Positions 1 through 35,359 of a stretch of DNA of 35,359 nucleotides are shown here, piece by piece (position 1 is the first letter of the stretch; each line of letters starts with the position of its first letter). Source of the stretch: a virus. A model generated the notes under the pieces. It was not told the DNA's origin. It saw only the letters and a list, made by a program, of their open reading frames with translations, and did not search any database. The stretch is taken from the IMG/VR virus record IMGVR_UViG_3300003332_000009, positions 1 to 35,359 of that record. One strand, 5' to 3'. A program made the translations under genes and the position numbers.

Positions 1-1
1 C

Positions 2-250
2 ACCGGAGCGGACCTCACCAGAGCGAACCTCACCAGAGCGAACCTCACCAGAGCGGACCTCACCGGAGCGGACCTCTACGGAGCGGACCTCTACGGAGCG
101 AACCTAACCGGAGCGGACCTCTACGGAGCGAACCTCACCAGAGCGGACCTCTACGGAGCGGACCTCACCAGAGCGGACCTTACTAGAGCGAACCTCACCA
201 GAGCGGACCTCACCGGAGCGAACCTCACCAGAGCGGACCTCACCGGAGCG
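2..250 (+). repeat. 15-bp tandem coding repeat, left part
   Basis: Sixteen full 15-base units (8-247) plus partial units at both sides. The unit is gcg-[g/a]ac-ctc-[a/t]ac or acc-[a/g]ga, giving A-D/N-L-T/Y-R/G. Apart from rare changes (cta near 109, ctt-act near 179-184) the units are identical at the DNA level, even at silent sites, which points to recent expansion or homogenisation. The same array continues at 34916-35359. Confidence 0.97.
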
Positions 251-625
251 AATATAGATATATACGGTAAGCATTTCAAAAGGATTTACGCGTACCACAG
301 TAATTGCCCGGAAGAAGGCGATTTTATAGCCTGGAAAAAAGTTTACGAAAATGGAAATGATATAATCTTAAAATTGCTCGTTACCGGTGCTAGAGTTTCT
401 CCTTTATCTGGCAGGAAATGCCGAACAAATGAAGTCAAAGTGCTGGCCGCGTTTAAAGGCAGAAAGGAGCGTAAAACCGGTGTATTCACTTCTGGTTATA
501 ACGCAAATTTTGAATACAGGATAGGCGAAACAATTACAACGCCTGATTTTGATCCCAATCCATTGGTTGAATGTTCCGCTGGTATTCATTTTTTCATAAC
601 TCGGCAAGAGGCTGAAGACTGGTAG
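2..625 (+). CDS. Pentapeptide-repeat protein with DUF5758-like C-terminal domain (3' part, start lies at 34841)
   Basis: The frame is open from base 2, has no start in the window and ends at the TAG at 623-625. It begins inside a pentapeptide array (16 complete A[D/N]L[T/Y][R/G] units, then ANIDIYG). A globular C-terminal domain of about 120 residues follows, with landmarks [26 protein letters not shown] and [18 protein letters not shown]. These match the DUF5758 domain that often follows phage pentapeptide repeats (family recalled, not searched). The array should form a right-handed quadrilateral beta-helix; its partner is unknown. The gene at 34841 runs off the other end in the same kind of array. 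A one-base overlap of the ends restores one frame of about 380 codons. It is the last gene of the rightward early block. Confidence 0.85.
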
Positions 626-18735: not shown

Positions 18736-20163
18736 ATGTCAATCATCTATCTACCGATCCAGAGCGCATACGGTCAGAACATAAAACCTTTCGGCGGGGC
18801 GTTACTCTATGTCTACGAAACCGGAACAACGACGCTAAAAACGGTTTATTCCGACAAGGCCGAAACGACTCCGCTTTCAAACCCGGTGGTCGCAAACGGA
18901 GAAGGAAGGTTCCCGGCAATGTATATCAGCGGGCTTTACAAGCTGGTGTGCAAGGACGAAAATGACGTTACAATCTGGACAGAAGATAACCTTCAGGGCC
19001 GGACGGGTGATCTGGTATGGGGTGGTGATTTCAGCAGCTCGACCAATGCCAGTAATTACCCGGCGTCAGGTAATCAAGGCGATTGGTATGTTGTGACCAC
19101 AGGCTTCACTCTTGCTACTTTATCAGGTGGATACGTCCTAAATGAAAGGGATTTTATCATTGCAAATAAAGACGGAGCAACCGGAATAGATGCTGATTGG
19201 GATATTGTCAGGGGTAAGAATTCAGTCCCCAAAGATGCAGATTTCTCTACAAAAAATTTATTGATAGACGTACAGTCAAATACAACGGTTGATCTGGATG
19301 CTGATGTAATCAATATTCTGAACTCTGACAACGAAGTAAAACAGGTTACTGATGTTGATTTAACTTTTACAATGCCAACAGACCTGCACGCAGGCAGCGA
19401 AAAAGCGTCTACAAACTATTGGTTATGGATTGATAGCGATTTAAACAAGGTTTTAGTCCCGGATTTAACGGGAACGGCAGACGGGACAACGGCAGGATTC
19501 CTTGAAGACTCAGGCAATACCTTTTTTACGGATGGTGTCAAAGCCGGGGATATCGCTTACAACACAAAGGATTTAACGCAAACCACAGTCAAAACAACGC
19601 CTACGGTTGACGGGGCAAACCTGGAAGTCAACGACGATATTTTTACGGATACAGAAACGTATCTTATCAGGTTACTATCGCCAACAGGATTGGGATCGTT
19701 TAAAGCTAGACTAGGAGCTGCTTATAATAACAGTTCAAGCCATTTTGATGACTCGTTTTATACTCAGATTCAGGAAAAAAAATCGTATGATGAAAATAAT
19801 CTAGCTATTTCATCAAGCCCAGCTATAGCGTCGAATAGGGGCGTTGAGGCTTTTGTGAGGCAAGTCAACGACTGGACCGGGGCTGGTTCGTGGAGAATAA
19901 ACGGATGTATAAGTTACGCGGTCGCGTCAGCGTCCAGAAACTCGGCAACGTTGACTATATCCGGAATAGTAAATAAAGCGGGGACTGCTGCAAATTACGA
20001 TCCAGTAATTATAGCAGAGGGTAACTCCGGTGTCGGCCCGTATAGAGGCAACGCGGTTTCTAGCACAGCTACATTCGTATGTAGCCACGGACCATTAACA
20101 ACCACCGCCTATTTTTTCTCGTTTGATGTTCCGCTTAATAAAAAACCAACATTTCACAAATAA
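18736..20163 (+). CDS. Tailspike / tail fibre protein
   Basis: 475 residues. The N-terminal domain (1-90) contains FGGALLYVYETGTTTLKTVY, then SNPVVANGEGRFPAMYISG and YKLVCKDENDVTIWTEDNL, the classic head-binding/anchor pattern of podovirus tail proteins. The middle is beta-rich with Gly and Asp. The last 95 residues repeat the domain found at the end of the 13544 product. No beta-helix endoglycosidase core or catalytic acid pair is evident, and the length is short for a P22 spike (667), so a receptor-binding fibre is more likely. Begins directly after the ejection gene stop. Confidence 0.85.
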   Translation: MSIIYLPIQSAYGQNIKPFGGALLYVYETGTTTLKTVYSDKAETTPLSNPVVANGEGRFPAMYISGLYKLVCKDENDVTIWTEDNLQGRTGDLVWGGDFSSSTNASNYPASGNQGDWYVVTTGFTLATLSGGYVLNERDFIIANKDGATGIDADWDIVRGKNSVPKDADFSTKNLLIDVQSNTTVDLDADVINILNSDNEVKQVTDVDLTFTMPTDLHAGSEKASTNYWLWIDSDLNKVLVPDLTGTADGTTAGFLEDSGNTFFTDGVKAGDIAYNTKDLTQTTVKTTPTVDGANLEVNDDIFTDTETYLIRLLSPTGLGSFKARLGAAYNNSSSHFDDSFYTQIQEKKSYDENNLAISSSPAIASNRGVEAFVRQVNDWTGAGSWRINGCISYAVASASRNSATLTISGIVNKAGTAANYDPVIIAEGNSGVGPYRGNAVSSTATFVCSHGPLTTTAYFFSFDVPLNKKPTFHK

Positions 20164-20166
20164 AAA

Positions 20167-20538
20167 ATGAAATTCAAACACGCAGAATCACCCGGCTACT
20201 ATTATAAAATAGACGACGCCGGAAATAAAAGCCCGTCATGGTCTCAAAAAAACAAGCCGGGATATTATCAAGAAATGATGGATTGGGTTGCTGAGGGCAA
20301 CGAAATAGAACCACAATTCACAGCCGAAGAGCTTGACCAGAAAATTGCCGACGATATCAAGCAGGCGCATGAAAAACAAAAATCCGATTGTATCCGGCTC
20401 CTGAACGAATCAGAAAAAGCGGTTTCTCATGATCCACCCTACCCGGATGATATCGATGCCTGGAAAAAGTATCGGGCTGAACTCAGGTTATTGCTAAAGT
20501 CTAAAGAGCTCGGCGACATTCCAAAAAAACCTTTTTGA
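20167..20538 (+). CDS. Tail fibre assembly-like protein
   Basis: 123 residues. N-terminal MKFKHAESPGYYYKIDDAGN is followed by a helical middle (EELDQKIADDIKQAHEKQKS). The C-terminus WKKYRAELRLLLKS, with GDIPKKPF, matches the W-x-x-YR-x-x-LR ... IP-x-x-P signature of tail-fibre assembly chaperones. It starts three bases after the spike/fibre stop, the usual position for this chaperone. Its stop codon lies inside the -35 element of the next promoter. Confidence 0.8.
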   Translation: MKFKHAESPGYYYKIDDAGNKSPSWSQKNKPGYYQEMMDWVAEGNEIEPQFTAEELDQKIADDIKQAHEKQKSDCIRLLNESEKAVSHDPPYPDDIDAWKKYRAELRLLLKSKELGDIPKKPF

Positions 20539-20563
20539 CATTCCGGTTTACATTTTATATAAT
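20535..20563 (+). promoter_or_regulatory. Perfect consensus sigma-70 promoter for the lipoprotein gene
   Basis: TTGACA (20535-20540), 17-base spacer, TATAAT (20558-20563): both hexamers and the spacer are consensus. The stop codon of the upstream gene is the TGA inside the -35. An AT-rich leader and an AGAGGA ribosome site lead to ATG 20600. It should fire with host polymerase and no phage factor, so the lipoprotein gene is likely expressed independently of the late operon. Confidence 0.85.
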
Positions 20564-20599
20564 AAATATAATTTATAAACCCAAACCAAAGAGGAAAAA

Positions 20600-21904
20600 A
20601 TGAAAAAGTATGTTTTGATGTTGCTGGCATTGTTTTTAATCGGATGTACAGAAGTTATCAAAGAAAGCAGTGATTCAGACACAACTGAAGATGCTCCAAT
20701 TGTCCACACAATTGCCGGTAAGCTACAAAAAGGCCGGTGCCTGAAGGATGCCAGAGTACAATCATGGCCATTGATCAACGGAACAATGAGCCAATCAGGT
20801 GCGCAATTTATCGAGTTTACCGGTGACGATGGGTCCTATAGTATGGACGTTCAAGGCGATTCTGAATACGTTTTTACGTACTTTAAAGGCTATTGTGACG
20901 ATGAAGTAAACGGTGGGTCAGGATGGCAGGAACTATACGGAATCAGAAAAGTATCAGACCCAATTTCAAACACGAATCCACTAACGAAAGTTTCTTATCA
21001 TGTGGCCAAGGACTTATTTGCTGACGGTTTTGGAACGGTCGAAGCCTGCCTGGCAGAATCTGAGAGGCTGACAACTGAGTTTATGTCAATGCCGAAAATT
21101 TCCGAGAGGTTCGGATCAATGAACCTTGAAAAAGACGGCGAGCAACACCGAGAACTTTCCCTTGCAAGTGCAGCTATTCTCTACGGTCGGACCGATGTTG
21201 AGGCCGGTGATTTCATGATTGAGATAGCAACCGCGATTATGAATGGCGACACGGCCTTAAAAGATGAAATTAGGGCAGTGTATGATGAATTGCCTCTGAT
21301 GACCGTAAAAAGCAATCTAGAGGCCAGCTATGCAAGCGTGGGAGTGGATATTGACGTTCCGAAACTATGGAGAATTCACGCGCCTGATTATTACGCTGAC
21401 TTATTGGAAAGAACCCCCGCTGTCCAAACAACCTACAATCTGGACGATACAACAAGCTGCAGTTTCGACCAGTCAGATTTTAATACTTTTGCGGTCCCGT
21501 ACACTTTCCAGGCGGGAATCGAATCAACGCGGTATATAGCCTTAAACGTTGCCAAAGATATTGACGTATCAATCTGGACGGTAGCGACTCATGTGGGTGG
21601 ATATCCAGCACCGGGAATTAAAATTCTGGACTTAACGAGGCTGAGGGAAAATCTACTTGCGGTTCCTGGCCTGTCATATAACGGCATGTTGGGTGATAAC
21701 CACGGGTTAAAAACAGGCGATGAGGTTTATATTGTATTTAGAAAAGACGCTGATTTCGTGCTGTCTAAATCATGCGGTGGTGACCGGCTTTACACAGCTT
21801 ACACACTGGCAAGCGATAACGAGGGTTTGACCTGGATAGGTGACGGTAACAACGCGGACCGGTTCTTTTATTTCACTGGGTTGATTTTAAAAGGGTTTAA
21901 CTGA
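20600..21904 (+). CDS. Lipoprotein, accessory (moron-like) gene
   Basis: 434 residues with a signal peptide MKKYVLMLLALFLIGC whose lipobox is L-I-G-C (Cys16). The mature start, TEVIKESSDSDTTEDAP, is a flexible acidic linker. Positions 2-3 after Cys are Glu-Val, not Asp, so outer-membrane sorting is possible. The early mature part looks like a small beta domain (IAGKLQKGRCLKDARVQSWP) of the carboxypeptidase-regulatory/surface type; the rest is unrecognised. It has its own consensus promoter and lies between tail and lysis genes, typical for genes altering the host surface. A role in superinfection exclusion is an inference. Confidence 0.8.
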   Translation: MKKYVLMLLALFLIGCTEVIKESSDSDTTEDAPIVHTIAGKLQKGRCLKDARVQSWPLINGTMSQSGAQFIEFTGDDGSYSMDVQGDSEYVFTYFKGYCDDEVNGGSGWQELYGIRKVSDPISNTNPLTKVSYHVAKDLFADGFGTVEACLAESERLTTEFMSMPKISERFGSMNLEKDGEQHRELSLASAAILYGRTDVEAGDFMIEIATAIMNGDTALKDEIRAVYDELPLMTVKSNLEASYASVGVDIDVPKLWRIHAPDYYADLLERTPAVQTTYNLDDTTSCSFDQSDFNTFAVPYTFQAGIESTRYIALNVAKDIDVSIWTVATHVGGYPAPGIKILDLTRLRENLLAVPGLSYNGMLGDNHGLKTGDEVYIVFRKDADFVLSKSCGGDRLYTAYTLASDNEGLTWIGDGNNADRFFYFTGLILKGFN

Positions 21905-22308
21905 TGCTGAAACTAGAACGTTCTTATCTGGATAACTGCACAATAGGCAAGATGTATTTTTCCGGTGAGTTTGTATGCTACACAGTCGAGCGCCCGTGGC
22001 TTAATAACGGGAAAAATATTAGCTGTGTACCTGCCGGGACGTATAAACTCGAACCGTATAGTTCCAGCAGGTTCCCGGACTGCTATTCACTGACGAGTTT
22101 TCCTCTCGGGGTCGGTCTTATCCCGAGTTTTCACCGGACCCATATTTTGATTCACCCAGGCAATTATCCACATGACGTGGAGGGTTGTATTGCACCGGGT
22201 CTCAGGCTTAATCAGTCAACATGGGGAGTCTCAGAGAGCAGGCCCGCAATGGATATGCTCAGAGGCTTAATCGAATTAAATAACATTCAAACATTGGAGA
22301 TTAAATAA
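21904..22308 (+). CDS. DUF5675-family protein, possible lysis enzyme
   Basis: 134 residues. The family pattern is clear: CTIGKMYFSGEFVCYTVERP, NISCVPAGTYKLEPY, and ILIHPGNYPHDVEGCIAPGL with His80, His84 and a GC(I) at 94-96. DUF5675 is widespread in phages near lysis genes; its activity is unknown, although the H...GC motif recalls L,D-transpeptidase-like sites. Here it sits between the lipoprotein and a holin-like gene, overlapping the former by one base, and no classical lysozyme exists elsewhere in the window. It is therefore the best endolysin candidate. Confidence 0.75.
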   Translation: MLKLERSYLDNCTIGKMYFSGEFVCYTVERPWLNNGKNISCVPAGTYKLEPYSSSRFPDCYSLTSFPLGVGLIPSFHRTHILIHPGNYPHDVEGCIAPGLRLNQSTWGVSESRPAMDMLRGLIELNNIQTLEIK

Positions 22309-22589
22309 TGGAAATCATAACAGCTTGGCTTATTCAATACGGGCTTATGGCAGCAGGCGGAACAATCGCGGCGGCTGTTTTGGGGTGGGTACTCGCTAAG
22401 ATTCCAACGGGAAAATGGTCAAAGCAGTCAGCTATCAAAGGGGCTGAACACGGTAAGATTGTAACCGCTTTTTGTTCCAAAAAAATCCCGCTATGGAATA
22501 ATGTAATTGAGCCAATATTCGTTGACACGGTTGGCGTTTTGCTTTCCTATATCAGCGGGTTTATTGTGGGCTTGAAGTCGGATAACTAA
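22308..22589 (+). CDS. Holin-like membrane protein
   Basis: 93 residues with two hydrophobic segments (about 8-30, AWLIQYGLMAAGGTIAAAVL, and 68-88, PIFVDTVGVLLSYISGFIVG) separated by a basic loop (KWSKQSAIKGAEHGK). Size, topology and place right after the DUF5675 gene suggest a holin or holin-like pore. TTGGAGATTAA provides the ribosome site. Its stop overlaps the stop of a convergent minus-strand gene by three bases. Not matched to a named holin family. Confidence 0.6.
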   Translation: MEIITAWLIQYGLMAAGGTIAAAVLGWVLAKIPTGKWSKQSAIKGAEHGKIVTAFCSKKIPLWNNVIEPIFVDTVGVLLSYISGFIVGLKSDN

Positions 22590-22759
22590 GTTTCAAATTC
22601 GTCAAGCTCAATCCAAAAATTGCCAGCATGAAAAACATAGTGCATACCATCATAATATTCACTGAAAAACCCGAATTTCGGTTTTCCTTGATAGTTTTCA
22701 AAACCGGCTGACCATGACCCGCTAAATAAAACACGAAGGAATATTTTTAAACTTTTCAT
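22586..22759 (-). CDS. Small minus-strand hypothetical protein
   Basis: 57 residues, MKSLKIFLRVLFSGSWSAGF ... YDGMHYVFHAGNFWIELDEF. Aromatic-rich, no family recognised. Its ATG (complement of 22757-22759) follows the TGA of the upstream minus gene by one base, so they are one operon. The end overlaps the holin-like stop in a convergent arrangement. The good coding texture and tight packing support a real gene although it is short. Confidence 0.6.
   Translation of the reverse strand: MKSLKIFLRVLFSGSWSAGFENYQGKPKFGFFSEYYDGMHYVFHAGNFWIELDEFET
22666..22685. terminator. Weak possible bidirectional terminator
   Basis: aaaacc (22666-22671) and ggtttt (22680-22685) flank cgaatttc; alternatively ccgaa-t-ttcgg forms a short stem. 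T-runs follow on both strands (GTTTTCC forward, GTTTTTCA reverse). It lies near the meeting point of convergent operons but inside the minus gene at 22586-22759. Stem quality is poor. Confidence 0.2.
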
Positions 22760-22760
22760 A

Positions 22761-22856
22761 TCAATTTGGCGGGATAAAATAAGTTTTGTTTCGCCTCTTC
22801 ACGACCACGATACCAGCCACGGCCAGAGCTGCAGCAAGAAAAATTAGTTTTTTCAT
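22761..22856 (-). CDS. Tiny minus-strand membrane peptide
   Basis: 31 residues, MKKLIFLAAALAVAGIVVVK, then RRNKTYFIPPN. One hydrophobic segment with a basic C-terminal flank, so either a single-span inner-membrane peptide or an uncleaved signal anchor. It lies between the HNH-like gene and the 57-residue gene on the same strand with only a few bases between them. Confidence 0.5.
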   Translation of the reverse strand: MKKLIFLAAALAVAGIVVVKRRNKTYFIPPN

Positions 22857-22869
22857 TTTTTGCCTGTTT

Positions 22870-23328
22870 TCATTGTGTGTGTTTCGACATTTCTTTATCA
22901 ATTGCGCTCTGCATGATTACCTCAACCACTTCGCCGCGGTGCTTGTTTTTAAACTGGTCCATTTTGAATAATTCCACCCAAAGCTGCTTGTCGACCCTTA
23001 GTTGTATGGTTGTTAATTTGCCACAAGGCGAAAACCTTACTTTCTTTTTTCGCCGCCTCTTGTTGTTTGCTTGTTCTTTTATGGTTGCCCACCTACAATT
23101 TTTAGGGCAGTAATTCCCGTCATTGTTTATTCTGTCGATTGACAACCCTGGCGGCCTTTTTCCCATATCAAGTAAGAAAGTATCGAAGCTATCCCACCTT
23201 TCACAGATAGATATCCCCCTCCCTCCATAGTATTTGTAACCACTATTTTTTTTATTATTGCACCTTTGCCTCATATTAGCCCATGTTTTGTACTCACTTT
23301 TGTGTAGTTTGCGGTTTGTATTTTTCAT
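22870..23328 (-). CDS. HNH-like (homing-type) nuclease with ribbon-helix-helix-like tail
   Basis: 152 residues. Residues 10-90 carry the phage HNH/AP2-associated pattern: YKTWANMRQRC, YYGGRGISICERW (33-45), then SIDRINNDGNYCPKNCRWAT (63-82) and EQANN. Such proteins nick DNA and can spread by homing. The C-terminal part (106-145, TTIQLRVDKQLWVELFKMDQ ...) looks like a ribbon-helix-helix segment, similar to the protein encoded just upstream at 23325-23498. The ATG overlaps the upstream TGA (ATGA). It sits in the only minus-strand operon of the window. Confidence 0.75.
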   Translation of the reverse strand: MKNTNRKLHKSEYKTWANMRQRCNNKKNSGYKYYGGRGISICERWDSFDTFLLDMGKRPPGLSIDRINNDGNYCPKNCRWATIKEQANNKRRRKKKVRFSPCGKLTTIQLRVDKQLWVELFKMDQFKNKHRGEVVEVIMQSAIDKEMSKHTQ

Positions 23329-23498
23329 AAAATCCCCTTGTGTTTCTCGTTAAAATCCTGCAGAGCCTCTTCAAAAGCGTCTTTTTTACTTTTTCCAATA
23401 CAGCTTGAAATCAGTTTGAATTGATACCAGACTTGCTTGCTAACTTCAACCAGTGTTTGAGTTGCTGGTTTTGTCGTATCATATTTTCTTTTTCCCAT
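23325..23498 (-). CDS. Small ribbon-helix-helix-like protein
   Basis: 57 residues: MGKRKYDTTKPATQTLVEVS, KQVWYQFKLISSCIGKSKKD, AFEEALQDFNEKHKGIL. The strand (TQTLVEVS) followed by two helices is the pattern of a short RHH DNA-binding protein. First gene after the minus-strand promoter; an AAAGGGG ribosome site precedes it. It could regulate the divergent promoters next door. Similarity to the tail of the neighbouring HNH-like protein suggests duplication. Confidence 0.55.
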   Translation of the reverse strand: MGKRKYDTTKPATQTLVEVSKQVWYQFKLISSCIGKSKKDAFEEALQDFNEKHKGIL

Positions 23499-23526
23499 TT
23501 GGCCCCTTTTGTTAGTGTGTGTCTCT

Positions 23527-23555
23527 ATTATCGGTAAAGGTTTTTATTATGTCAA
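23527..23555 (-). promoter_or_regulatory. Leftward sigma-70 promoter
   Basis: Read on the minus strand: TTGACA (complement of 23550-23555), 17-base spacer, GATAAT (complement of 23527-23532). The -35 is consensus and the -10 has one mismatch. It drives the minus-strand operon whose first start codon is at 23498. Confidence 0.7.
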
Positions 23556-23566
23556 TAAAAAAAGTG

Positions 23567-23595
23567 TTGACAATAAAATAAATATAGTCCATCCT
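23567..23595 (+). promoter_or_regulatory. Rightward early promoter, divergent from the leftward one
   Basis: TTGACA at 23567-23572; 17 bases on lies CATCCT (23590-23595), a poor -10 that keeps the key A2 and T6. The -35 elements of the two promoters stand back to back 11 bases apart in an AT-rich stretch, so their regulation is probably linked. The first rightward gene starts at 23638 with TTGGAGGATT. Confidence 0.45.
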
Positions 23596-23637
23596 GTAGT
23601 AGAAATGATTTTTTAACCTTTTTGGAGGATTAAACCT

Positions 23638-23928
23638 ATGAGCGAACACGGACCAAGTTTTGACGCAGCGCAACGCGCACACGATAACGCTGAACATCCC
23701 GACTATTGGGAGGATGACACGGAGCATGATGAGATGTTTGATTACATTCAAAGCGTCTACAGAAAGTCAGATCTGGTAGAAACCTGGACAATTACAATCA
23801 ATATAACCAAGCTGAACGCAACCGGCGTGTACCATATTGATCTTGGAGAATTTTCAGGTGCCGGTCAGAGCAAAACTGAGGCATTGATAGATTTATGTGA
23901 ACAAATTTTGGAGAATTCGAATGAGTGA
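23638..23928 (+). CDS. First gene of the early recombination operon, hypothetical
   Basis: 96 residues. The N-terminus MSEHGPSFDAAQRAHDNAEH is His/Asp/Glu-rich, then YWEDDTEHDEMFDYIQ. The C-terminal half is a beta-alpha unit (TWTITINITKLNATGVYHID; GQSKTEALIDLCEQILENS) typical of small phage early proteins. It has a strong GGAGG ribosome site and overlaps the ERF gene by eight bases. Function unknown. Confidence 0.7.
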   Translation: MSEHGPSFDAAQRAHDNAEHPDYWEDDTEHDEMFDYIQSVYRKSDLVETWTITINITKLNATGVYHIDLGEFSGAGQSKTEALIDLCEQILENSNE

Positions 23929-24634
23929 AAACGAAATCGTAGTAAAAGAAGATTCCAGCCCCATGACTCACGCCAGCGAGTTTTTGAAGTATGGCGGCAA
24001 AATGGAGGATCTGGAAAAGATGCTTGAGTTACAGGAACGGCACGATGCAAATGAGGCTAGGAAAGCGTTTCATGTAGCGATGGCTGATTTCAAGAAAAAT
24101 CCGCCTGAGATTTTGAAGTCGAAGAAAGTGAGCTACAAAACCAGCAGTGGCGAAGCTTCATATAATCACGCCGACTTGGGAGTGATAACAACGGCTATCG
24201 GTTCTTCTTTGGCTGAGCATGGTTTGAGTGCAAGCTGGAAGCAAGAGCAGGATGCAGGTATTAAGGTCACTTGCCGACTGACACATGAGTTAGGACACTT
24301 CGAAGAAACTTCCCTTTTTTCACCTCCTGACACGTCGGGTGGAAAGAATAGCATCCAGGCCATAGGATCAACGATCACTTATCTGCAACGGTATACCTTG
24401 CTCGCGTTGACCGGGCTTGCTGCACATGACCAGGATGATGACGGAGCTGGTGTAAATGATGATCTGGTTAATGAAATTGCGTCCCTGAAAACGGTTGAAG
24501 CCATTGAAAAATATTACAGGGATCACAGCAAGGATCACCCACAAATGAAAACTTTAATTGCCCTGCTTGTATCCAGGAAAGCGGGAATTGTCAAGGAAAA
24601 GTTAGAAGATGCCGCAGCGGTTAAGGGGGTGTGA
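23921..24634 (+). CDS. erf: ERF-family single-strand annealing protein
   Basis: 237 residues starting at ATG 23921, preferred because GGAG lies upstream and the family begins near MSENEIVV; an upstream ATG at 23897 is inside the previous gene. ERF-family landmarks: FKKNPPEILKSKKVSYKT, NHADLGVITTAIGSSLAEHG and the strongly conserved TYLQRYTLLALTGLAAHDQD-DDG. It anneals complementary strands, circularises or concatemerises phage DNA and works with the exonuclease encoded next. Start overlaps the previous stop. Confidence 0.93.
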   Translation: MSENEIVVKEDSSPMTHASEFLKYGGKMEDLEKMLELQERHDANEARKAFHVAMADFKKNPPEILKSKKVSYKTSSGEASYNHADLGVITTAIGSSLAEHGLSASWKQEQDAGIKVTCRLTHELGHFEETSLFSPPDTSGGKNSIQAIGSTITYLQRYTLLALTGLAAHDQDDDGAGVNDDLVNEIASLKTVEAIEKYYRDHSKDHPQMKTLIALLVSRKAGIVKEKLEDAAAVKGV

Positions 24635-25251
24635 TGGAAATTGTTAATGTCGAGCAGCTATCTCCTGAGTGGTGGAAGCTGAAAGAAAAACGGATGACTG
24701 CCAGCCATGCTCAGGCTATTGGCGCGAACGGTAAGGGGCTTGAGACTTACATAAACAAATTAATGCAAGAGTATTATAGCAATGCAGACCCGGAACATTT
24801 CAGCAACCATCATACCGAGAGAGGGACCGAATTGGAAGACTCCGCAGGGTTTGTATATCAGATGGAGACAGGTATGGAAGTTAGCAAAATCGGCTTCGTA
24901 ATCTATAATGATTATGTTGGTGCGTCACCTGATTTATTTGTGGGAGATGATGGTATGGCAGAAATAAAATGCTTAGCTGATAAGGGTTACTTTGACCTGC
25001 TCATGGGAGCAAAACCAGATACAAAATACATCTGGCAAGCCAATATGCAGCTTCTTGTATGCGAAAAAAAATGGAACGACCTTGTATTTTACAATCAAAA
25101 TTTCGATGAGCCATTAATTATTATCAGGGTTGAACCTGACCACGCGAAGTTTGAAAAACTGGAAGCCGGTTTTGAATCCGGGATTGTGATGATCCAAGAA
25201 ATTGAAAACAAGATGAACAAAATTTTATCAACCAAACAGGAGAAAATATGA
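24634..25251 (+). CDS. YqaJ / lambda-exonuclease family nuclease
   Basis: 205 residues from ATG 24634 (a GTG at 24631 is possible). Motifs: SPEWWKLKEKRMTASHA near the start, ERGTELEDSAGF (62-73), then catalytic D100 in GASPDLF and E110-x-K112 in MAEIKCL, and QANMQLLV (135-142). This is the PD-(D/E)XK set of the YqaJ recombinase family. It should resect double-strand ends to feed the ERF protein. TGATG overlap with erf. Confidence 0.92.
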   Translation: MEIVNVEQLSPEWWKLKEKRMTASHAQAIGANGKGLETYINKLMQEYYSNADPEHFSNHHTERGTELEDSAGFVYQMETGMEVSKIGFVIYNDYVGASPDLFVGDDGMAEIKCLADKGYFDLLMGAKPDTKYIWQANMQLLVCEKKWNDLVFYNQNFDEPLIIIRVEPDHAKFEKLEAGFESGIVMIQEIENKMNKILSTKQEKI

Positions 25252-26231
25252 GAAGAGAAGCAGCTGCACCTGAAACAGAATTAATCGTTATTGAAAATAT
25301 AAACGCTATTGAATTGTTTACCGGTGAAAAAGTGGACCCTTTACTTGAGGGTATTTCCGAAAAAGTGAAAGCGTTTGTCCCCGACCTTTCCACCGATACC
25401 AGCCGCAAGAAAATTGCATCTATAGCGCACCAAGTATCAAAGGCAAAAACCGGCCTTGATAAATTGGGTAAGGATTTGGTTGCCGATTGGAAAACCAAGG
25501 CTAAGGCTGTTGACGCATCCAGGAAACACATCCGGGACAGCCTGGATTATCTGAAAGCTGAAGTCCGTCAACCGCTGACGGAATGGGAAGAGGCCGAAAA
25601 ACAAAAGGAGGAAGAGGCCCGGCTACTCGCTGAATATTTGGCTGATTGGGATCAGGCTATTGCAGATGATGATTTGATCAACCGAGAGCGTGAAGTTGCC
25701 AGGAAAGAAGCTGAATTTGCCAAGCAAGAGGAGGAGCGTCGGCAGAAAGAAGAGGCCGACCGCATGGAAAAAGAGAGGATCGAGCGTGAAGAACGGCTGA
25801 AGAAAGAAGCTGCTGAAACCGCTAAACGGGAAGCGGAAGAGAAGGTGGCAAAGGCTAAAGCTGAAAAAGAAGAGTCTGAGCGCAAACTAAAAGAAGCGGA
25901 ACAGAAACGCAAAGATGATGCTCTCAAGGCTGAAATTGAACGTAAAAATGCAGCAGCAAGGGCAGAACTTGAACGGAAAGCGGCTATTCAAGAGGCCGAA
26001 CGCAAGGCCCAACAGGAAGCCGATAGAAAAGAAGCTGACCGGCTGGAAGCGGAACGTGTCGCAAAGGAAAAGGCAGATAGGAAAGCAGCTAACCTGAATC
26101 ATCAAGGCAAAATCAACCGAGAAGCTCTTGCTGATTTCGTAAAAATTGAAGGGGTTACTGAATCCCTTGGAAAAGATATACTCAGAGCGATTGCCAAGGG
26201 CGACATTTCCCATATTTCCATTAATTACTAA
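25248..26231 (+). CDS. Coiled-coil protein of the recombination operon
   Basis: 327 residues. A globular N-terminal region (LIVIENINAIELFTGEKVDP) and TSRKKIASIAHQVSKAKTGL precede a very long charged coiled coil (about 115-275; Glu, Lys, Arg and Ala heptads). A small C-terminal domain (NREALADFVKIEGVTESLGK) ends in ILRAIAKGDISHISINY. This layout resembles phage proteins beside ERF/RecT and YqaJ genes (some DUF1351-like). It may bridge recombination partners. Overlaps the exonuclease gene by four bases. Confidence 0.8.
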   Translation: MRREAAAPETELIVIENINAIELFTGEKVDPLLEGISEKVKAFVPDLSTDTSRKKIASIAHQVSKAKTGLDKLGKDLVADWKTKAKAVDASRKHIRDSLDYLKAEVRQPLTEWEEAEKQKEEEARLLAEYLADWDQAIADDDLINREREVARKEAEFAKQEEERRQKEEADRMEKERIEREERLKKEAAETAKREAEEKVAKAKAEKEESERKLKEAEQKRKDDALKAEIERKNAAARAELERKAAIQEAERKAQQEADRKEADRLEAERVAKEKADRKAANLNHQGKINREALADFVKIEGVTESLGKDILRAIAKGDISHISINY

Positions 26232-26668
26232 TGATTGAATTCACACACTCAGAAGATACAGAGGGCGTTATTTCAAGGTGTCAATCCCTGATAAACGAGT
26301 ACCAGAAAGATAATGACCTTCTGCCGGAACGATTGAAATATATCGAGAAGAAACTTGCCGGGTATTTTTCGTATCTAATCCGTAAAAAGGCACAATACCA
26401 AGCCCTACAAAACGCTCACTACTGGATTAGGAAAGTATCCCATTCAAGGGAATCAATTAAGGCAAGGGGTGCTGGTAACACTCAGGGGTTGTCTGACCAT
26501 ATCGCCAACACGAATATTGAACAGCAGATCAAAGATGAAACATTTGGGGTATGGCGCTATGAAGATTTAAACGGGTTTTGCCGGGCGCTGGAAAAGATTT
26601 TTATTTCTATCGCCCATCAGTTGAAGGATTATGAGAAGGAACGTATTAATTCAAGGAACCAGACATGA
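26231..26668 (+). CDS. Hypothetical early protein
   Basis: 145 residues. Helical throughout: RCQSLINEYQKDNDLLPERL, YFSYLIRKKAQYQALQNAHY, then LNGFCRALEKIFISIAHQLK. The ATG overlaps the stop of the coiled-coil gene, so it is part of the recombination operon. Possibly a recombination accessory factor by context; no known family recognised. Confidence 0.65.
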   Translation: MIEFTHSEDTEGVISRCQSLINEYQKDNDLLPERLKYIEKKLAGYFSYLIRKKAQYQALQNAHYWIRKVSHSRESIKARGAGNTQGLSDHIANTNIEQQIKDETFGVWRYEDLNGFCRALEKIFISIAHQLKDYEKERINSRNQT

Positions 26669-26994
26669 TTGAAAAACCCGGGCCACACAAGAAACCCAAG
26701 CGGCCAAGAATCAAGCCACCCGCTGAAAAGCATTGCCGGAGGTGCAATAGAACCACCGGAACAGAGGCATGGAGACACGCAGAAAGCCGGTTAATCAAGT
26801 TTGAACATGGCGGCGGTATAATGGGTGGAAAGCTGCCAGATGACCAAACTAGCTGGCTCTGTTTGGATTGCGACATGGAATTATCTCAACCTCTGCCGAA
26901 AGATGCAAGTCAGAAAGATTTGGAGTATCATAAAAAACAATGGCAGAAAGTTATAAAACTATCCCATAACGATGTACAGCACACCGAGGATTGA
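26665..26994 (+). CDS. Zinc-ribbon protein (CxxC...CxxC), early operon
   Basis: 109 residues. A basic Pro/Lys N-terminus (KPGPHKKPKRPRIKPP) leads to HCRRCNRTTGTEAWRHAESR, then GGGIMGGKLPDDQTSWLC and LDCDMELSQPLPKDA. The two Cys pairs and the His positions suggest a zinc-binding fold like NinG/HNH-type recombination proteins, but no complete HNH is visible. Its place after erf and yqaJ genes fits a DNA-processing role. Start overlaps the preceding stop. Confidence 0.65.
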   Translation: MIEKPGPHKKPKRPRIKPPAEKHCRRCNRTTGTEAWRHAESRLIKFEHGGGIMGGKLPDDQTSWLCLDCDMELSQPLPKDASQKDLEYHKKQWQKVIKLSHNDVQHTED

Positions 26995-27071
26995 TTTTCT
27001 CGCAAAACAGGTACTCAGGTATCAAATAAGAAAGAAAATGGATTTAAACACGCTTAAACAAGGGAAAAACA

Positions 27072-27287
27072 ATGGTATTAATATACAGAAAATCACAACA
27101 CCGAATGATCCAGCCATCTGACATCGCCACAGGCCGTAAGTCTAAGCATAAATTTAATCCAACAAGTGAGTATATTGCAGAGGCTACGAAAGAATTTTTG
27201 CGGGATGGAGGTCGGATAACCAAGCTTGCCCATGAAGAACCTAGTAGATATTATGAAAACATTTTTGATTTGGATGACGATGTTTAG
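27072..27287 (+). CDS. Small protein with YIxEAxxxFLxxGGxI motif
   Basis: 71 residues from ATG 27072 (AAGGG upstream). The key region is PTSEYIAEATKEFLRDGGRI, then TKLAHEEPSRYYENIFDLDD. A similar pattern (YIDEAVEQYLNYGGKI) occurs in the 34668 product, so these are short phage proteins of one type; the helix-turn-GG-strand unit is common in early phage genes. Function not known. Ends by overlapping the ATG of the next gene. Confidence 0.65.
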   Translation: MVLIYRKSQHRMIQPSDIATGRKSKHKFNPTSEYIAEATKEFLRDGGRITKLAHEEPSRYYENIFDLDDDV

Positions 27288-27429
27288 CCAATCGGAAATA
27301 GAGTTATTAAAATCGGTTAAAGAGATATTCCCCGAATCGGAACTAATTATCTACTATGCAACGCCTGAACAGGTCGAGCAGCTTAAAAAAGATGGCTTGT
27401 CCGGGATATCAAGGAGACAGAGGAAATGA
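27280..27429 (+). CDS. Small hypothetical protein
   Basis: 49 residues from ATG 27280 (MFSQSEIELLKSVKEIFPES), which overlaps the previous TAG; upstream in-frame ATGs lie inside the preceding gene. The rest reads ELIIYYATPEQVEQLKKDG and a basic tail. A single alpha/beta unit. The stop overlaps the methyltransferase start. Confidence 0.55.
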   Translation: MFSQSEIELLKSVKEIFPESELIIYYATPEQVEQLKKDGLSGISRRQRK

Positions 27430-28316
27430 ACGTACTAAGCCTATTCGACGGCATGGCCTGTGGTCTTGTCGCACTGAAACGAGCCGGAATTCCGGTAACG
27501 AATTACTACGCATCTGAAATTGACAAGTACGCTATTCAGATTGCGAAAAAGAATCATCCAGAGATTATCGAGTTGGGATCAATTGAGAATTACGAGTCAT
27601 GGGATTTACCAAAGATAGACATAATAATTGGTGGCAGTCCATGCCAGGGATACAGTTTTGCAGGAAAAAAACTCAATTTTGGTGATCCACGGTCAGCGTT
27701 GTTTTTTAAGTTTGTTGAGTGTTTATGGAAATTCAAGCCTGACCATTTTTTGATGGAAAATACACGCATGGACAAGGGTATCCAAGACGCAATAAGCGAA
27801 CTATTAGAAGTCGAACCATTCGAAATCAACTCTTCGTTAGTCAGCGCACAAGATAGAAAAAGAATATATTGGACAAATTTACCAGGGCCCCAACTTCCAG
27901 ATAATAAAAATATACAATTAAAAGATATACTTGAGCCAATTCAAGAATCTTGCAATTTAGGAATCAGAGCAAAATCAAAATGTTTGCGTGTCGGTGGATT
28001 AAAAAGCCCATTTTATTCAAAACAAGAATGGGACAGCCCGTTTATTAAAACAGATAAAAATCTCAAAGAAAAATACAATCAATATAAATCATGCTGTTTA
28101 ACTGGCGGCGCTCATTCTGGCGGTAATCATTCACAAATGGATTTGATTTTATTTAAAAATATGGAATGCCGGCGATATACACCAATCGAATGCGAACGAC
28201 TCCAAACACTACCAGACAATTACACTGAAGGCGTCAGCAACCCCCAGCGGTACAAGATGATAGGCAATGGCTGGACTGTTGACGTTATCGCGCATATATT
28301 GCAGGGGATAAAATGA
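27426..28316 (+). CDS. C5-cytosine DNA methyltransferase
   Basis: 296 residues. Motif I FDGMACG (7-13), motif IV GGSPCQGYSFAG (69-80; catalytic Cys73), motif VI as ENT (111-113, instead of the usual ENV), motif VIII QDRKRIYW (142-149), motif IX RRYTPIECERLQTLP (249-263) and motif X GNGWTV (280-285). The short target-recognition region (about 180-245) has Cys and Gly clusters. No restriction partner is nearby, so it is a solitary enzyme that probably protects phage DNA from host restriction or marks it for replication/packaging control. Overlaps both neighbours. Confidence 0.92.
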   Translation: MNVLSLFDGMACGLVALKRAGIPVTNYYASEIDKYAIQIAKKNHPEIIELGSIENYESWDLPKIDIIIGGSPCQGYSFAGKKLNFGDPRSALFFKFVECLWKFKPDHFLMENTRMDKGIQDAISELLEVEPFEINSSLVSAQDRKRIYWTNLPGPQLPDNKNIQLKDILEPIQESCNLGIRAKSKCLRVGGLKSPFYSKQEWDSPFIKTDKNLKEKYNQYKSCCLTGGAHSGGNHSQMDLILFKNMECRRYTPIECERLQTLPDNYTEGVSNPQRYKMIGNGWTVDVIAHILQGIK

Positions 28317-28531
28317 TACACAACCACGATTTCAGCAACGCCGGGAAAATCGAGAAAATGAAAAACCAGTGGGGTGACGCAAGAATATCTCCGTACCGGT
28401 TTTATATCGAGTTTTACAGCAAGTATTCATTGCATGGGTATTCTAAGTTTTTGGAAATGATCAACTACCAGGAGAGGTACAGCCCGGAGCTGGATAGGGC
28501 GGTGAAGGATTTTCAAAAAGTTTATTTTTAG
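28313..28531 (+). CDS. Small hypothetical protein after the methyltransferase
   Basis: 72 residues, MIHNHDFSNAGKIEKMKNQW, RISPYRFYIEFYSKYSLHGY and a short helix. Rich in Tyr, Phe and Lys. The ATG overlaps the methyltransferase stop. No family recognised; a partner of the methyltransferase is possible by coupling only. Confidence 0.55.
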   Translation: MIHNHDFSNAGKIEKMKNQWGDARISPYRFYIEFYSKYSLHGYSKFLEMINYQERYSPELDRAVKDFQKVYF

Positions 28532-28534
28532 GGG

Positions 28535-28564
28535 TTGACAACCGTTTTTTTTGTGTTGTAAAGT
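28535..28564 (+). promoter_or_regulatory. Promoter of the replication block
   Basis: TTGACA (28535-28540), 18-base T-rich spacer, TAAAGT (28559-28564). It begins three bases after the preceding stop. Transcription would start near 28571, so a product beginning at ATG 28574 would be almost leaderless, which favours the downstream ATG 28610 for the XRE-type gene. Confidence 0.65.
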
Positions 28565-28609
28565 AGTTAAAAGATGTTAAAATTATTTAATAGAATCAAA
28601 TGGTATCAT

Positions 28610-28819
28610 ATGAGAATAACAATAGAAACAGCCCAATCCGGGATTGCTGAGTTTAGGCAAAAAAACGGGTACACCCTGGATAAACTTTCAGAAAAAACCG
28701 GTGTTGCAAAATCTACATTGATAAAAATCGAGGCTGGAAGTGTAAAGCCACAGGCGACAACCGTCTATAAACTTAACCAGCACATTAAAACGGTTGAGCC
28801 ATGCACAGAGGCTATGTAA
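28610..28819 (+). CDS. XRE-type HTH regulator (Cro-like size)
   Basis: 69 residues from ATG 28610 (81 from ATG 28574). The HTH spans IAEFRQKNGYTLDKLSEKTG, then VAKSTLIKIEAGSVKPQATT, the XRE/Cro signature with the IExGxxxPxxxT tail. Being only one domain long, it could act as Cro or as a regulator of the replication operon and its promoter at 28535. No larger CI-like repressor was found in the window. The gene end overlaps the replication initiator start by 19 bases. Confidence 0.75.
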   Translation: MRITIETAQSGIAEFRQKNGYTLDKLSEKTGVAKSTLIKIEAGSVKPQATTVYKLNQHIKTVEPCTEAM

Positions 28820-29580
28820 GGGATTACAGGAAAGGGATAGAACATCCTCTTTTTTCGAGACCTCTTATATGGCATTTCTGGACATATTGCAGGCTAAGGG
28901 CAAACCATAAAGAAGTCTTGATTGACTTTAATGGTCTACCTCTCAAACTCGAAAGGGGATGTTTCGTCATGAGCGTAGGAAGCGCATCAAAGGATACTGG
29001 ATTGACCACCCAAAATATCAGGACGGCAATCAAGATTCTCTCTTCTCACGGAATGATCGAAAAATCAACAAGCGAAGTAACAAAGCAAGCGACTATTGTA
29101 AGGGTGCTAAAATACGACGTTTACCAGGATTTAAAAAAGGATGCTAACAAGGTAACTAACGAACAGCTAACAAAGTGCCAACAAGGTGCTAACAAAGTGC
29201 TAACAACAGATAATAATGTTAATAATGTTGAAAATGAAGAAAAGAACTATTCCGAAGACTCTAACGAGTTTCGGTTGGCAGTTTTTCTTTTAAACAATAT
29301 TAGGAAACGGAAACCGGATTTCAAAATACCCAACCTACAAACATGGTCAAAGCAATCTGATTATATTTTAAGGATTGATAGGAGAGATATCGGCGAGGTT
29401 AAAAAGGTAGTTATGTGGTGTCAGGCCGATGAATTCTGGCAGGACAATATCTTATCTACTGCAAAACTCAGAAAACAGTATGACCAACTTGTTTTGAAGA
29501 TGAATAAGGAAACAGCTAACGGAATACAATCAAAAAAGAGCGCAACATTAACAGCTATACCGGGGGCGATCAGTGTTTAA
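28801..29580 (+). CDS. Replication initiator (winged-helix, iteron-carrying)
   Basis: 259 residues. N-terminal domain (1-110): WHFWTYCRLRANHKEVLIDF, LKLERGCFVMSVGSASKDTG, LTTQNIRTAIKILSSHGMIE, a winged helix like phage O-type or DnaD-like replication proteins. Residues 115-137 are encoded by 11-bp DNA repeats and are low-complexity (Asn, Lys, Val, Thr). C-terminal part (160-245) has YILRIDRRDIGEVKKVVMWC and FWQDNILSTAKLRKQYDQL, a typical helicase-loading domain. Lambda O likewise holds its origin inside its gene. It overlaps the primase-helicase start by eight bases. Confidence 0.82.
   Translation: MHRGYVRDYRKGIEHPLFSRPLIWHFWTYCRLRANHKEVLIDFNGLPLKLERGCFVMSVGSASKDTGLTTQNIRTAIKILSSHGMIEKSTSEVTKQATIVRVLKYDVYQDLKKDANKVTNEQLTKCQQGANKVLTTDNNVNNVENEEKNYSEDSNEFRLAVFLLNNIRKRKPDFKIPNLQTWSKQSDYILRIDRRDIGEVKKVVMWCQADEFWQDNILSTAKLRKQYDQLVLKMNKETANGIQSKKSATLTAIPGAISV
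29143..29209 (+). repeat. Six 11-bp iterons inside the initiator gene, putative replication origin
   Basis: gctaacaaggt (29143), a weaker aactaacgaac (29154), then four head-to-tail units gctaacaaagt (29166), gccaacaaggt (29177), gctaacaaagt (29188), gctaacaacag (29199). The 11-base period is one helical turn and not a multiple of three, so the repetition is not a protein repeat. An AT-rich stretch follows (29210-29245), fitting an unwinding element. Confidence 0.7.
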
Positions 29581-31294
29581 AACATTCAAAGACAAGCGCA
29601 ATGAAGAATGGAACATAATAACATCATGGAACGATTTAGACATTCCAAATGCGTCAGATGGTAAGACAGTATGCCTATGTCCTCTATGTTCATCTGGCAG
29701 GTCAGACGCTAACAAAAAACAAAAATGTCTTTCTGTAAATTATAAAAGGGGAACCGCATATTGTGGGCATTGTGGAAAAAGGTTTATGTTGATGCCAGAA
29801 AAACCTACAGAAAAGGTTCACAGAAAAAAACCGGTATATAAAAAACCTGAGGAAAAAATAAAACATGATATTCCAGAAGAACTATTACTGTATCTTTATA
29901 AGCGGAAAATAACCGATAAAGTTATCTCCCGGAATAAGTTAGGCCATTCTGTTAAATGGTTTGCAAAAGCAAAAAAAGAGGCTCCATGTATATCTTTGCC
30001 GTACCACAAAGACGGGATACACACCGGGACAAAATACAGGTTGCCGGAACCAAAAGACCACACAGCAGAAACCGGAGCAGAGCCGATTGTTTACGGCTAT
30101 GATGATATTAAAGGCGACACACTTATATGGGTAGAGGGGGAGTTTGACAAATTAGCGGTTGAAGTTGCTGGGTTCGAAAATTGTGTGTCAGTCCCGAACG
30201 GGGCAAAAAGCGCAGGGTCACTTGAGAATTGCAAAGAGAAGTTAGAAAAAATAACAAACCATATCATAGCAGGTGATAACGACAAAGACGGAAAAGAACT
30301 AACAACCGAGTTAATTCGGAGGCTGAACCCAGCGAGGTGTAAACTTGTAAAATGGCCGGAAGGGTGCAAAGACGCTAACGAGGTGCTTTACCGTCACGGC
30401 CCGGAAATTGTCAAAAGGTGCATTGAAGACGCTGAAAGGATGCCAGTAAAGGGAATCGTAAAACCATCCGCATTGGTAAATAAATTACTTGATTTGTATG
30501 ATAGCCCTGATGCTCATGGACTATCTACCGGGTGGGATAATGTAGATAAACTTTACAGGGTGCGCCCAGGTCAGTGGACTGTAGTAACCGGTATCCCGAA
30601 TCATGGGAAAAGTGAATGGCTGGATGCGTTGGCCACAAACATGATGATAAATCACAAGTGGAAGTTTGGCATATTCAGCCCCGAAAATAATCCTATAGAA
30701 GAGCATTTAGAAAAGTTTATAAAAAAATTCTACGGGAAACCATACGGCAAAGGGTACAATGGTAGTATTACAAAAGAACAAGCGGCTGAGTTAGCTATTA
30801 ATCTTGATGATAGGTTGAATTTTATTGCTATTGACGAAGACATACACACAATGGAATCCCTGATAGAAGTAACTGAATCGTTAGTTTTATCTGAAGGGAT
30901 AAACGGGGTAATTTATGACCCATGGAACATGATAGAACACAATAGACCATCAAACGTATCAGAAACAGATTATATTTCATCCGCTTTAAGTAAAGTGACA
31001 TACATGGTAAAAAAACATAATATTCATGCTTGGATTGTAGCGCATCCTACCAAGCTACAAAAAAAACATGATAACACATATGCCCCACCGCTACCTTATG
31101 ATATATCAGGATCAGCCCATTGGAATAATAAATGCTATAATGCTATAACTATCCATATTCCAAACGATAAAGAAATGCCAGAAAATGCGGTAAAAATATA
31201 TGTTAACAAAATCAAAAGCAGAAAAACCGGGAGACCAGGGGAAACTGTTCTTTACTATCAAGGGGCTTCCGGCAGATATACAACACAACCATGA
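29573..31294 (+). CDS. TOPRIM primase-DnaB-like helicase (T7 gp4-type)
   Basis: 573 residues (T7 gp4 is 566). Start GTG 29573, overlapping the initiator stop. Zinc-binding CPLC (36-39) and CGHC (64-67). TOPRIM: catalytic Glu in WVEGEFDKLA (E188) and AGDNDKDG (233-240, two Asp). RecA-like helicase: Walker A GIPNHGKS (340-347), Walker B-type GVIYDPW (D449), sensor IVAHPTK. The SENNP segment of gp4-like proteins appears here as FSPENNP. One polypeptide primes and unwinds the phage fork, loaded by the upstream initiator at the iterons. Confidence 0.93.
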   Translation: MFKTFKDKRNEEWNIITSWNDLDIPNASDGKTVCLCPLCSSGRSDANKKQKCLSVNYKRGTAYCGHCGKRFMLMPEKPTEKVHRKKPVYKKPEEKIKHDIPEELLLYLYKRKITDKVISRNKLGHSVKWFAKAKKEAPCISLPYHKDGIHTGTKYRLPEPKDHTAETGAEPIVYGYDDIKGDTLIWVEGEFDKLAVEVAGFENCVSVPNGAKSAGSLENCKEKLEKITNHIIAGDNDKDGKELTTELIRRLNPARCKLVKWPEGCKDANEVLYRHGPEIVKRCIEDAERMPVKGIVKPSALVNKLLDLYDSPDAHGLSTGWDNVDKLYRVRPGQWTVVTGIPNHGKSEWLDALATNMMINHKWKFGIFSPENNPIEEHLEKFIKKFYGKPYGKGYNGSITKEQAAELAINLDDRLNFIAIDEDIHTMESLIEVTESLVLSEGINGVIYDPWNMIEHNRPSNVSETDYISSALSKVTYMVKKHNIHAWIVAHPTKLQKKHDNTYAPPLPYDISGSAHWNNKCYNAITIHIPNDKEMPENAVKIYVNKIKSRKTGRPGETVLYYQGASGRYTTQP

Positions 31295-31830: not shown

Positions 31831-31994
31831 TAACTGAATCATTCAGCCCACGAACACAAAAGTTTATCTACATAGCAAACGGGACAATAGATTCTAACAT
31901 TTTCCGTAACATTTGTGAACGGCTTTTTTGTGCTAAAGTAATGGTGGTGCGGCATATAGACGGGCAAACTATCGGACATTCCAGGCGTATTTAA
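31827..31994 (+). CDS. Small hypothetical protein
   Basis: 55 residues, MITESFSPRTQKFIYIANGT, NIFRNICERLFCAKVMVVRH, then GQTIGHSRRI. Its ATG overlaps the HNH stop (ATGA). One alpha/beta unit with two Cys. Too short for a family call, but the tight spacing and good coding texture support it. Confidence 0.55.
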   Translation: MITESFSPRTQKFIYIANGTIDSNIFRNICERLFCAKVMVVRHIDGQTIGHSRRI

Positions 31995-31995
31995 A

Positions 31996-34838: not shown

Positions 34839-34840
34839 AA

Positions 34841-35359
34841 ATGGATAAAAAAAAGTTAGAAAAAATACTTGATTTGCACAAAAAATGGTTAAGGGGAGAT
34901 AAAGGCGGGAATAGAGCGGACCTCTACGGAGCGGACCTAACCGGAGCGGACCTCTACGGAGCGGACCTCACCAGAGCGAACCTCACCAGAGCGGACCTCA
35001 CCGGAGCGAACCTCACCAGAGCGAACCTCACCGGAGCGAACCTCACCAGAGCGGACCTCACCAGAGCGAACCTCACCAGAGCGAACCTCACCAGAGCGGA
35101 CCTCACCGGAGCGGACCTCTACGGAGCGGACCTCACCAGAGCGAACCTCACCAGAGCGGACCTCTACGGAGCGAACCTCACCAGAGCGGACCTCTACGGA
35201 GCGGACCTCACCAGAGCGGACCTCACCGGAGCGAACCTCACCAGAGCGAACTTCACCGGAGCGAACCTCACCGGAGCGGACCTCACCAGAGCGAACCTCA
35301 CCAGAGCGAACCTCACCAGAGCGGACCTCACCGGAGCGGACCTCTACGGAGCGGACCTC
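34841..35359 (+). CDS. Pentapeptide-repeat protein, 5' part (continues at 2-625)
   Basis: The ATG at 34841 follows a GGATAAGGGG ribosome site. MDKKKLEKILDLHKKWLRGD, then GGNR, forms a short N-terminal helix that usually caps pentapeptide proteins. From 34916 the repeat begins: 29 full units and ADL at the edge. The reading frame reaches the last base at codon 173. A one-base overlap with base 1 completes the next unit as ADLTG and leads into the left part; direct joining would shift the frame. The full protein would have 46 units and about 380 residues. Confidence 0.85.
   Translation, partial: MDKKKLEKILDLHKKWLRGDKGGNRADLYGADLTGADLYGADLTRANLTRADLTGANLTRANLTGANLTRADLTRANLTRANLTRADLTGADLYGADLTRANLTRADLYGANLTRADLYGADLTRADLTGANLTRANFTGANLTGADLTRANLTRANLTRADLTGADLYGADL
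34916..35359 (+). repeat. 15-bp tandem coding repeat, right part
   Basis: 29 complete 15-base units plus nine bases. Unit types seen: [25 protein letters not shown] and one ANFTG (aac-ttc at 35249-35254). The codon choice is nearly constant. Tyr occurs only in the unit with Asp and Gly. Part of the array that continues at 2-250. Confidence 0.97.

What the first reader, a model, noticed from the sequence alone, without database searches (positions are those of the whole stretch)
2..250. Near-identical 46-unit pentapeptide array built from five main unit types
Nearly all units are one of [20 protein letters not shown] or ADLYG, with the same codons. Three sites vary (D/N, T/Y, R/G) but not freely: Y occurs only with D and G. 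Typical pentapeptide families diverge in sequence; DNA-level uniformity implies ongoing expansion, contraction or gene conversion, which changes length in frame. With four units per coil this is about 11-12 coils, a rod whose faces present R/G and T/Y in a shuffled pattern. This could be a fast-evolving binding rod, a DNA mimic or a surface decoy.
Basis: partly seen in the sequence, partly recalled or inferred. Interest (0 to 1): 0.75.

Follow-up and report, generated by a model that had tools for sequence, protein, structure and literature searches.

The report
Shuffled pentapeptide-repeat phage protein array
A bacterial virus carries a rod-shaped repeat protein built from a handful of nearly identical five-residue bricks, and in related viruses the number and order of these bricks changes while the rest of the gene stays the same, which suggests a protein surface that phages reshuffle quickly for an unknown purpose.

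Summary
The array is real but mis-counted. The contig is a P22-like podovirus cut inside one gene; its ends share an exact 91-bp overlap. Without that duplicate the gene reads in frame as a 350-aa protein: 25-aa cap, 40 pentapeptides (not 46; 40 is a floor), and a DUF5758 domain. Uniform codons are not codon bias. No close relative of this phage was found, so its own dynamics are unseen. The family answers instead. Among 79 dereplicated arrays, 39 have no silent variation between units. Replacement divergence exceeds silent divergence in 85 of 101 arrays, the window included. In isolated phages the gene's ends are nearly identical while arrays differ: 10 Salmonella phages and 3 Caulobacter phages. 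RapA and JessA have no mismatch in aligned sequence outside the array but 27 versus 20 units. Mycobacteriophage relatives have diverged units and stable length. DNA mimicry and surface decoy lack support. Best reading: a solenoid turned over by recombination while exposed residues stay diverse. Function is inferred.

The parts
34841..34915 (+). Start of the gene and 25-aa N-terminal cap (MDKKKLEKILDLHKKWLRGDKGGNR)
   Evidence: cap related to that of Salmonella phage ST104 (shuffle z 6.8)
34916..35359 (+). Pentapeptide array, first part (29.6 units up to the end of the contig)
   Evidence: TRF 34913-35359; PF00805 E=4.2e-58
1..91 (+). Exact copy of 35269-35359: terminal overlap of the contig, not additional array
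   Evidence: leaving it out joins the gene in frame
92..247 (+). Pentapeptide array, last part; 40 units in all with the first part
   Evidence: PF00805 E=1e-35 for 2-622
248..625 (+). Degenerate last unit (ANIDI), helical linker and C-terminal DUF5758 domain (Pfam match about 296-613), stop at 623-625
   Evidence: PF19062 E=1.7e-22, 79.8 bits over cut-off 26.9; AlphaFold2 mean pLDDT 90

Best explanation
A phage gene for a three-part protein: a small N-terminal cap, a right-handed pentapeptide beta-solenoid of at least 40 units, and a C-terminal DUF5758 domain. SHOWN here: the architecture; near-identity of the units at DNA level that is not codon bias; variation between units concentrated at codons 2, 4 and 5; and, in relatives, different copy number and order of the same few unit types while the two ends of the gene stay nearly identical. 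INFERRED: the array is turned over by recombination or replication slippage between near-identical 15-mers, which removes silent differences and changes length by whole units, while selection keeps a mixture of side chains on the exposed positions. The rod is thus a renewable, mosaic interaction surface. Most likely it is made early in infection and binds or titrates a host factor, with DUF5758 as the constant working or anchoring end; the target is unknown.
For: Architecture. Not codon bias. Zero silent variable sites in 39 of 79 dereplicated arrays of 6 or more units; codon-2 first base variable in 78 of 79 but the Ala third base in 22 of 79. pN above pS between units in 85 of 101 arrays; window 0.162 against 0.049. 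Dynamics in isolates; in metagenome contigs. Published cases: ST64T has one more 15-bp repeat than L in orf232 (PMC8022706, passages); GB2A differs from RW by a few bases and a 375-bp deletion in a pentapeptide gene (PMC11053796, passage). Early context in relatives: between ral and gene 17/c3/kil/erf in Salmonella phages, near the immunity repressor in mycobacteriophages. Codons 4 and 5 are linked (median excess NMI 0.277) but only weakly to codon 2 (0.071 and 0.078), as expected if exchange points fall in the constant Leu and Ala codons. Analogous pattern with a recognition role in fungal NLR repeats (PMC4986451, passages).
Against: No close relative of this phage was found, so dynamics in it are not observed. 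Unit order in the window shows no significant block repeats (9 repeated triplets against 5.9 expected, p=0.148). Several identical contig pairs carry identical arrays. One Salmonella phage (ST-87) keeps intact ends with only 2 array units, so a long rod is dispensable at least sometimes. Some arrays are broken out of frame (ST-29; PAS7). Length differences are not restricted to multiples of 4 units, so no fixed face of the rod is preserved between the ends, which fits a passive spacer too. pN/pS on 5-codon units is crude and many of the 101 arrays are related. No function is known for DUF5758 and no fold match was found. The host-factor step rests on gene position in relatives only.
Confidence: 0.5

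Rival explanations
1. Passive, length-tolerant spacer: the array is a minisatellite inside a gene whose product needs only some rod between the cap and the C-terminal domain. Units turn over neutrally and unit variants are leftovers of a few founder units.
For: Copy number ranges from 2 to 25 between otherwise near-identical Salmonella genes; length differences fall in all classes modulo 4; few unit types per array, with linked neighbouring codons, as founder haplotypes would give.
Against: Neutral turnover should leave silent and replacement differences in like measure; pN exceeds pS in 85 of 101 arrays and 39 of 79 arrays have no silent variable site.
Confidence: 0.3
2. DNA mimic that binds gyrase or another DNA-binding host protein, like Qnr or MfpA.
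For: Same solenoid repeat family; sequence matches to Qnr and MfpA structures (2xtx, 3pss, 6zt4). Early-operon position beside anti-restriction gene ral in Salmonella relatives.
Against: Array almost neutral, -0.07 per unit; median of 101 arrays -0.15, and 20 of 101 are positive. Hits are to the repeat only.
Confidence: 0.1
3. Targeted hypermutation, as in a diversity-generating retroelement, writes the variable codons.
For: Variation sits at fixed sites of a constant scaffold.
Against: No reverse transcriptase (PF00078) in the window nor in 10 of 10 records behind related loci (four of these are metagenome virus contigs of 10-21 kb, probably fragments). Only few of the possible codons occur at each site in the window.
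Confidence: 0.02
4. Assembly artefact: the order and uniformity come from short-read misassembly.
For: Array split at the contig ends with a 91-bp overlap; longest internal repeats just below that length.
Against: Unit types differ by real base changes; isolate genomes and bacterial genome assemblies show the same kind of array; the joined gene is in frame and has the family architecture.
Confidence: 0.04

Closest known systems
DUF5758 pentapeptide proteins of phages (Pfam PF00805 + PF19062)
   Same: Same domain order, cap motif and few-unit arrays; 251 relatives of the alignment in viral contigs (80 kept), 15 in genome contigs.
   Different: None in kind; the window array is the longest in the table (40 units; L101 has 39).
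orf232/ORF19 of Salmonella phages ST64T, L, ST104 and the pentapeptide genes of Caulobacter phages RapA, BL94, JessA
   Same: Few unit types with fixed codons; array differs between near-identical phages. ST104 shares the cap type.
   Different: Unrelated C-terminal domain by sequence (window against ST104 z 1.7, against RapA z 1.0).
Kostyavirus (mycobacteriophage) pentapeptide proteins
   Same: DUF5758-like C-terminal domain: 144 mycobacteriophage records hit by the window's domain; L113 hits 144 records.
   Different: Units diverged and array length stable: 58 of 60 listed rows span exactly 1,701 bp and 2 span 1,695.
High-internal-conservation WD/ANK/TPR repeats of fungal NLRs (HET-D/E)
   Same: Near-identical repeats, repeat-number polymorphism, replacement variation at surface codons (PMC4986451, passages).
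   Different: Unrelated repeat fold, no NTPase, phage gene; no recognition function shown.
Qnr / MfpA gyrase-protecting pentapeptide proteins
   Same: Solenoid repeat family.
   Different: Near-neutral, low-alphabet array with another C-terminal domain.

Membership tests
Pentapeptide repeat proteins (PF00805) | Tandem A(D/N)LXX units above the curated cut-off | tested here: met
   192.8 and 121.3 bits against 20.2 for the two halves
Pentapeptide repeat proteins (PF00805) | Beta-solenoid fold | tested here: inconclusive
   AlphaFold2 model of 2-622 has a one-residue strand or bridge every five residues, block pLDDT 86-96 over the first 70 residues; eight-row alignment; no experiment
DUF5758 (PF19062) | C-terminal domain above the curated cut-off | tested here: met
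   79.8 bits against 26.9, profile 2-105 of 105
High-internal-conservation repeats (fungal NLR type) | Over 85% amino-acid identity between repeats over 100 aa or more | tested here: not met
   Mean amino-acid identity between units 0.716; DNA identity 0.868
High-internal-conservation repeats (fungal NLR type) | Repeat-number polymorphism between near-identical genes | tested here: inconclusive
   Met in related phage genes; no close relative of the window
High-internal-conservation repeats (fungal NLR type) | Excess replacement change at surface codons | tested here: inconclusive
   pN 0.162 against pS 0.049 in the window, pN above pS in 85 of 101 arrays; no formal codon-model test
Qnr / MfpA gyrase DNA mimics | Strongly acidic DNA-like surface | tested here: not met
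   Array net charge -0.07 per unit
Qnr / MfpA gyrase DNA mimics | Binds and inhibits or protects gyrase | not testable with these tools
   none
Diversity-generating retroelement target | Reverse transcriptase in the same genome | tested here: not met
   PF00078 absent from the window and from 10 of 10 related records

The most novel reading that the evidence does not exclude
Many phages carry a fast-shuffling recognition rod: a low-alphabet pentapeptide array whose exposed residues are kept diverse by selection and re-ordered by recombination within very short times, retargeting or hiding the protein from a host factor. The same array doubles as a recombination hub through which unrelated caps and C-terminal domains are exchanged.
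Probability: 0.3. Interest if true: 0.85.

Novelty: new variant of a known kind. Interest (0 to 1): 0.6.

Why it matters
Phage pentapeptide proteins are widely annotated but their role is open. If arrays are reshuffled between otherwise clonal phages, they are among the fastest-changing coding sequences in these genomes. That would be a bacterial-virus counterpart to the reshuffled recognition repeats of fungal immune receptors, and it makes the question directly testable: change the array, keep the gene, measure host range and defence escape in laboratory strains.

Tried and rejected
DNA matches of window 20001-35359 to named phages: none. Array DNA pattern in viral contigs: none. Portal protein in viral contigs: 8 pattern matches, no relative. 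Reverse transcriptase: none. PDB fold comparison of the C-terminal model: no Foldseek match at E<=1e-3; VIA best Z 3.3. E. coli genomes for the Salmonella gene: no match. A phage Erf annealase as common driver: the window has an Erf-like and a RecE-like gene, but PF04404 was found in only 3 of 15 related records, so it is not shown to be required (some of the 15 are fragments, and two misses have an annotated erf). Block periodicity of the window array: not significant.

Literature: searches of the held library for pentapeptide repeat with tandem repeat, hypervariable, copy number variation, number of repeats/indel, anti-defense, and DUF5758 gave no general account of this; listings only. Passages read: PMC8022706, PMC11053796 (plus its section 12), PMC4986451, PMC7159879, PMC10886550. 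Which solenoid positions face inside or outside is recalled, not tested.

Rows dropped: one search left out 24 duplicate or near-identical loci and arrays under 6 units; the unit filter keeps only A..L/F units, so the zero replacement counts at Ala and Leu are by construction. One search also left out all loci L132-L179; many are re-fetches, but some are new contigs with usable arrays; 5 of 15 loci lacked an anchor; three of these (epsilon34, g341c, NM-3) were read with 12, 17 and 24 units, ST-29 is out of frame, and SR18 showed no array there. The output was cut.

Full report
WHAT IS THERE. The window is one 35,359-base virus record. Its genes mark a P22-like podovirus: large terminase, portal, scaffold, major head protein (P22 coat-type by its best phage hits), Hc3, DNA-transfer protein, with small terminase, an Erf-like annealase, a RecE-like exonuclease, a DNA methyltransferase and a helicase loader elsewhere. 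The first and last 91 bases are identical. The array lies across this junction. The longest exact repeats inside the array are a little shorter than 91 bases, so any longer repeat could have been lost and 40 is a minimum.

IS IT MORE THAN CHANCE. Yes. 36 of 40 units are one of five exact 15-mers. Codon bias does not explain it: GCG is 21% and CTC 9% of Ala and Leu codons in 31 other genes of the window. Y units always carry D and G (p=0.005 and 0.001).

IS IT UNUSUAL. Not in its family. Relatives were collected from viral contigs, genome contigs and named phages. Most arrays use few unit types, each with one codon set. Of 79 dereplicated arrays of six or more units, 39 show no silent variable site; the first base of codon 2 varies in 78, the third base of the Ala codon in 22 and of the Leu codon (silently) in 20. 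In 101 arrays, including isolates, pN between units exceeds pS in 85 (medians 0.174 and 0.049); the window has 0.162 and 0.049. Arrays in that set are partly related, so the count is not a probability. Diverged arrays such as L113 (0.436 and 0.532) and L053 (0.251 and 0.726) show that the test can go the other way.

DO ARRAYS CHANGE. In metagenome contigs: L077 and L080 differ by 1 base in 1,930 of flank but by 13 bases and 30 gap bases in the array; L075 and L084 by 0 in 1,500 downstream and 20 mismatches plus 135 gap bases in the array (L075 is cut by its contig end, so its gap count is not meaningful); L094 and L097 by 0 in 1,500 upstream and 8 mismatches plus 75 gap bases in the array, though their sequences part some 300 bases after it. 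Against this, L009/L011, L043/L045, L095/L111 and L088/L090/L091/L092 have identical arrays. In isolated phages: seven Salmonella phages have 2, 13, 13, 14, 16, 20 and 25 full units and three Caulobacter phages 20, 22 and 27, with 0-1 differences in 78 bp before and 270 bp after the array in all 24 pairs. Three more Salmonella phages with another cap variant have 12, 17 and 24 units. RapA and JessA align without a mismatch on both sides of the array (14,485 bp left; about 30.2 kb right with 6 gap bases and one indel between the two aligned blocks) yet have 27 and 20 units in different order; the authors call these two genomes nearly identical (PMC11053796 section 12). Two such changes are already in print: one unit between L and ST64T (PMC8022706) and a 375-bp deletion between GB2A and RW (PMC11053796). 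Mycobacteriophage relatives are the contrast: 144 of 144 records cover most of the query, and 58 of the 60 listed rows span exactly 1,701 bp.

MODULARITY. Two caps and two C-terminal domains without detectable sequence similarity to each other occur in all four combinations around the array: cap A with DUF5758 (window, L101, L090), cap A with the other domain (ST104, PVN06), cap B with DUF5758 (Rhizobium phage, L124-L126), cap B with the other domain (RapA). The array may help such exchange; that is inference.

HOW IT MAY WORK. Near-identical 15-mers recombine or slip, which adds or drops whole units in frame and erases silent differences. That exposed residues stay diverse while silent sites do not suggests selection for a mixed surface. 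Length changes are not restricted to multiples of four units, so a fixed relation between faces of the rod and the two ends is not kept. In Salmonella phages the gene lies between ral and gene 17/c3/kil/erf and in mycobacteriophages near the immunity repressor. I therefore favour an early, host-facing binding protein with a renewable surface, at about one chance in two for the whole statement, and the passive spacer as the main rival. The C-terminal domain gives no hint: well-predicted model, no fold match.

VERDICT.

Noticed in passing
window 29142-29206: Tandem 11-bp repeats inside the helicase-loader/O-like gene 28801-29580: possible replication origin iterons, as described for phage L gene 18 in PMC8022706.
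   Followed up: no
window 33704-34411; Salmonella phages SI8, SF6, SF10, MG40: An HNH endonuclease gene lies about 430 bp upstream of the array gene. In several Salmonella P22-like phages the stretch between flanks like those of the array gene holds an HNH endonuclease.
   Followed up: partly
L186 (Escherichia phage PAS7): A pentapeptide array is split between two reading frames and annotated on the opposite strand as 'modular polyketide synthase'.
   Followed up: partly
window 1-91 and 35269-35359: Exact 91-bp terminal overlap, as expected of a circular assembly cut inside a repeat.
   Followed up: yes
L009, L010, L014, L015, L016, L023, L024, L025: 8 of 24 contigs end within or close to the array, so such arrays often break short-read assemblies.
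   Followed up: no
L148, L151, L152: Three DUF5758 genes in one 167-kb virus contig.
   Followed up: no
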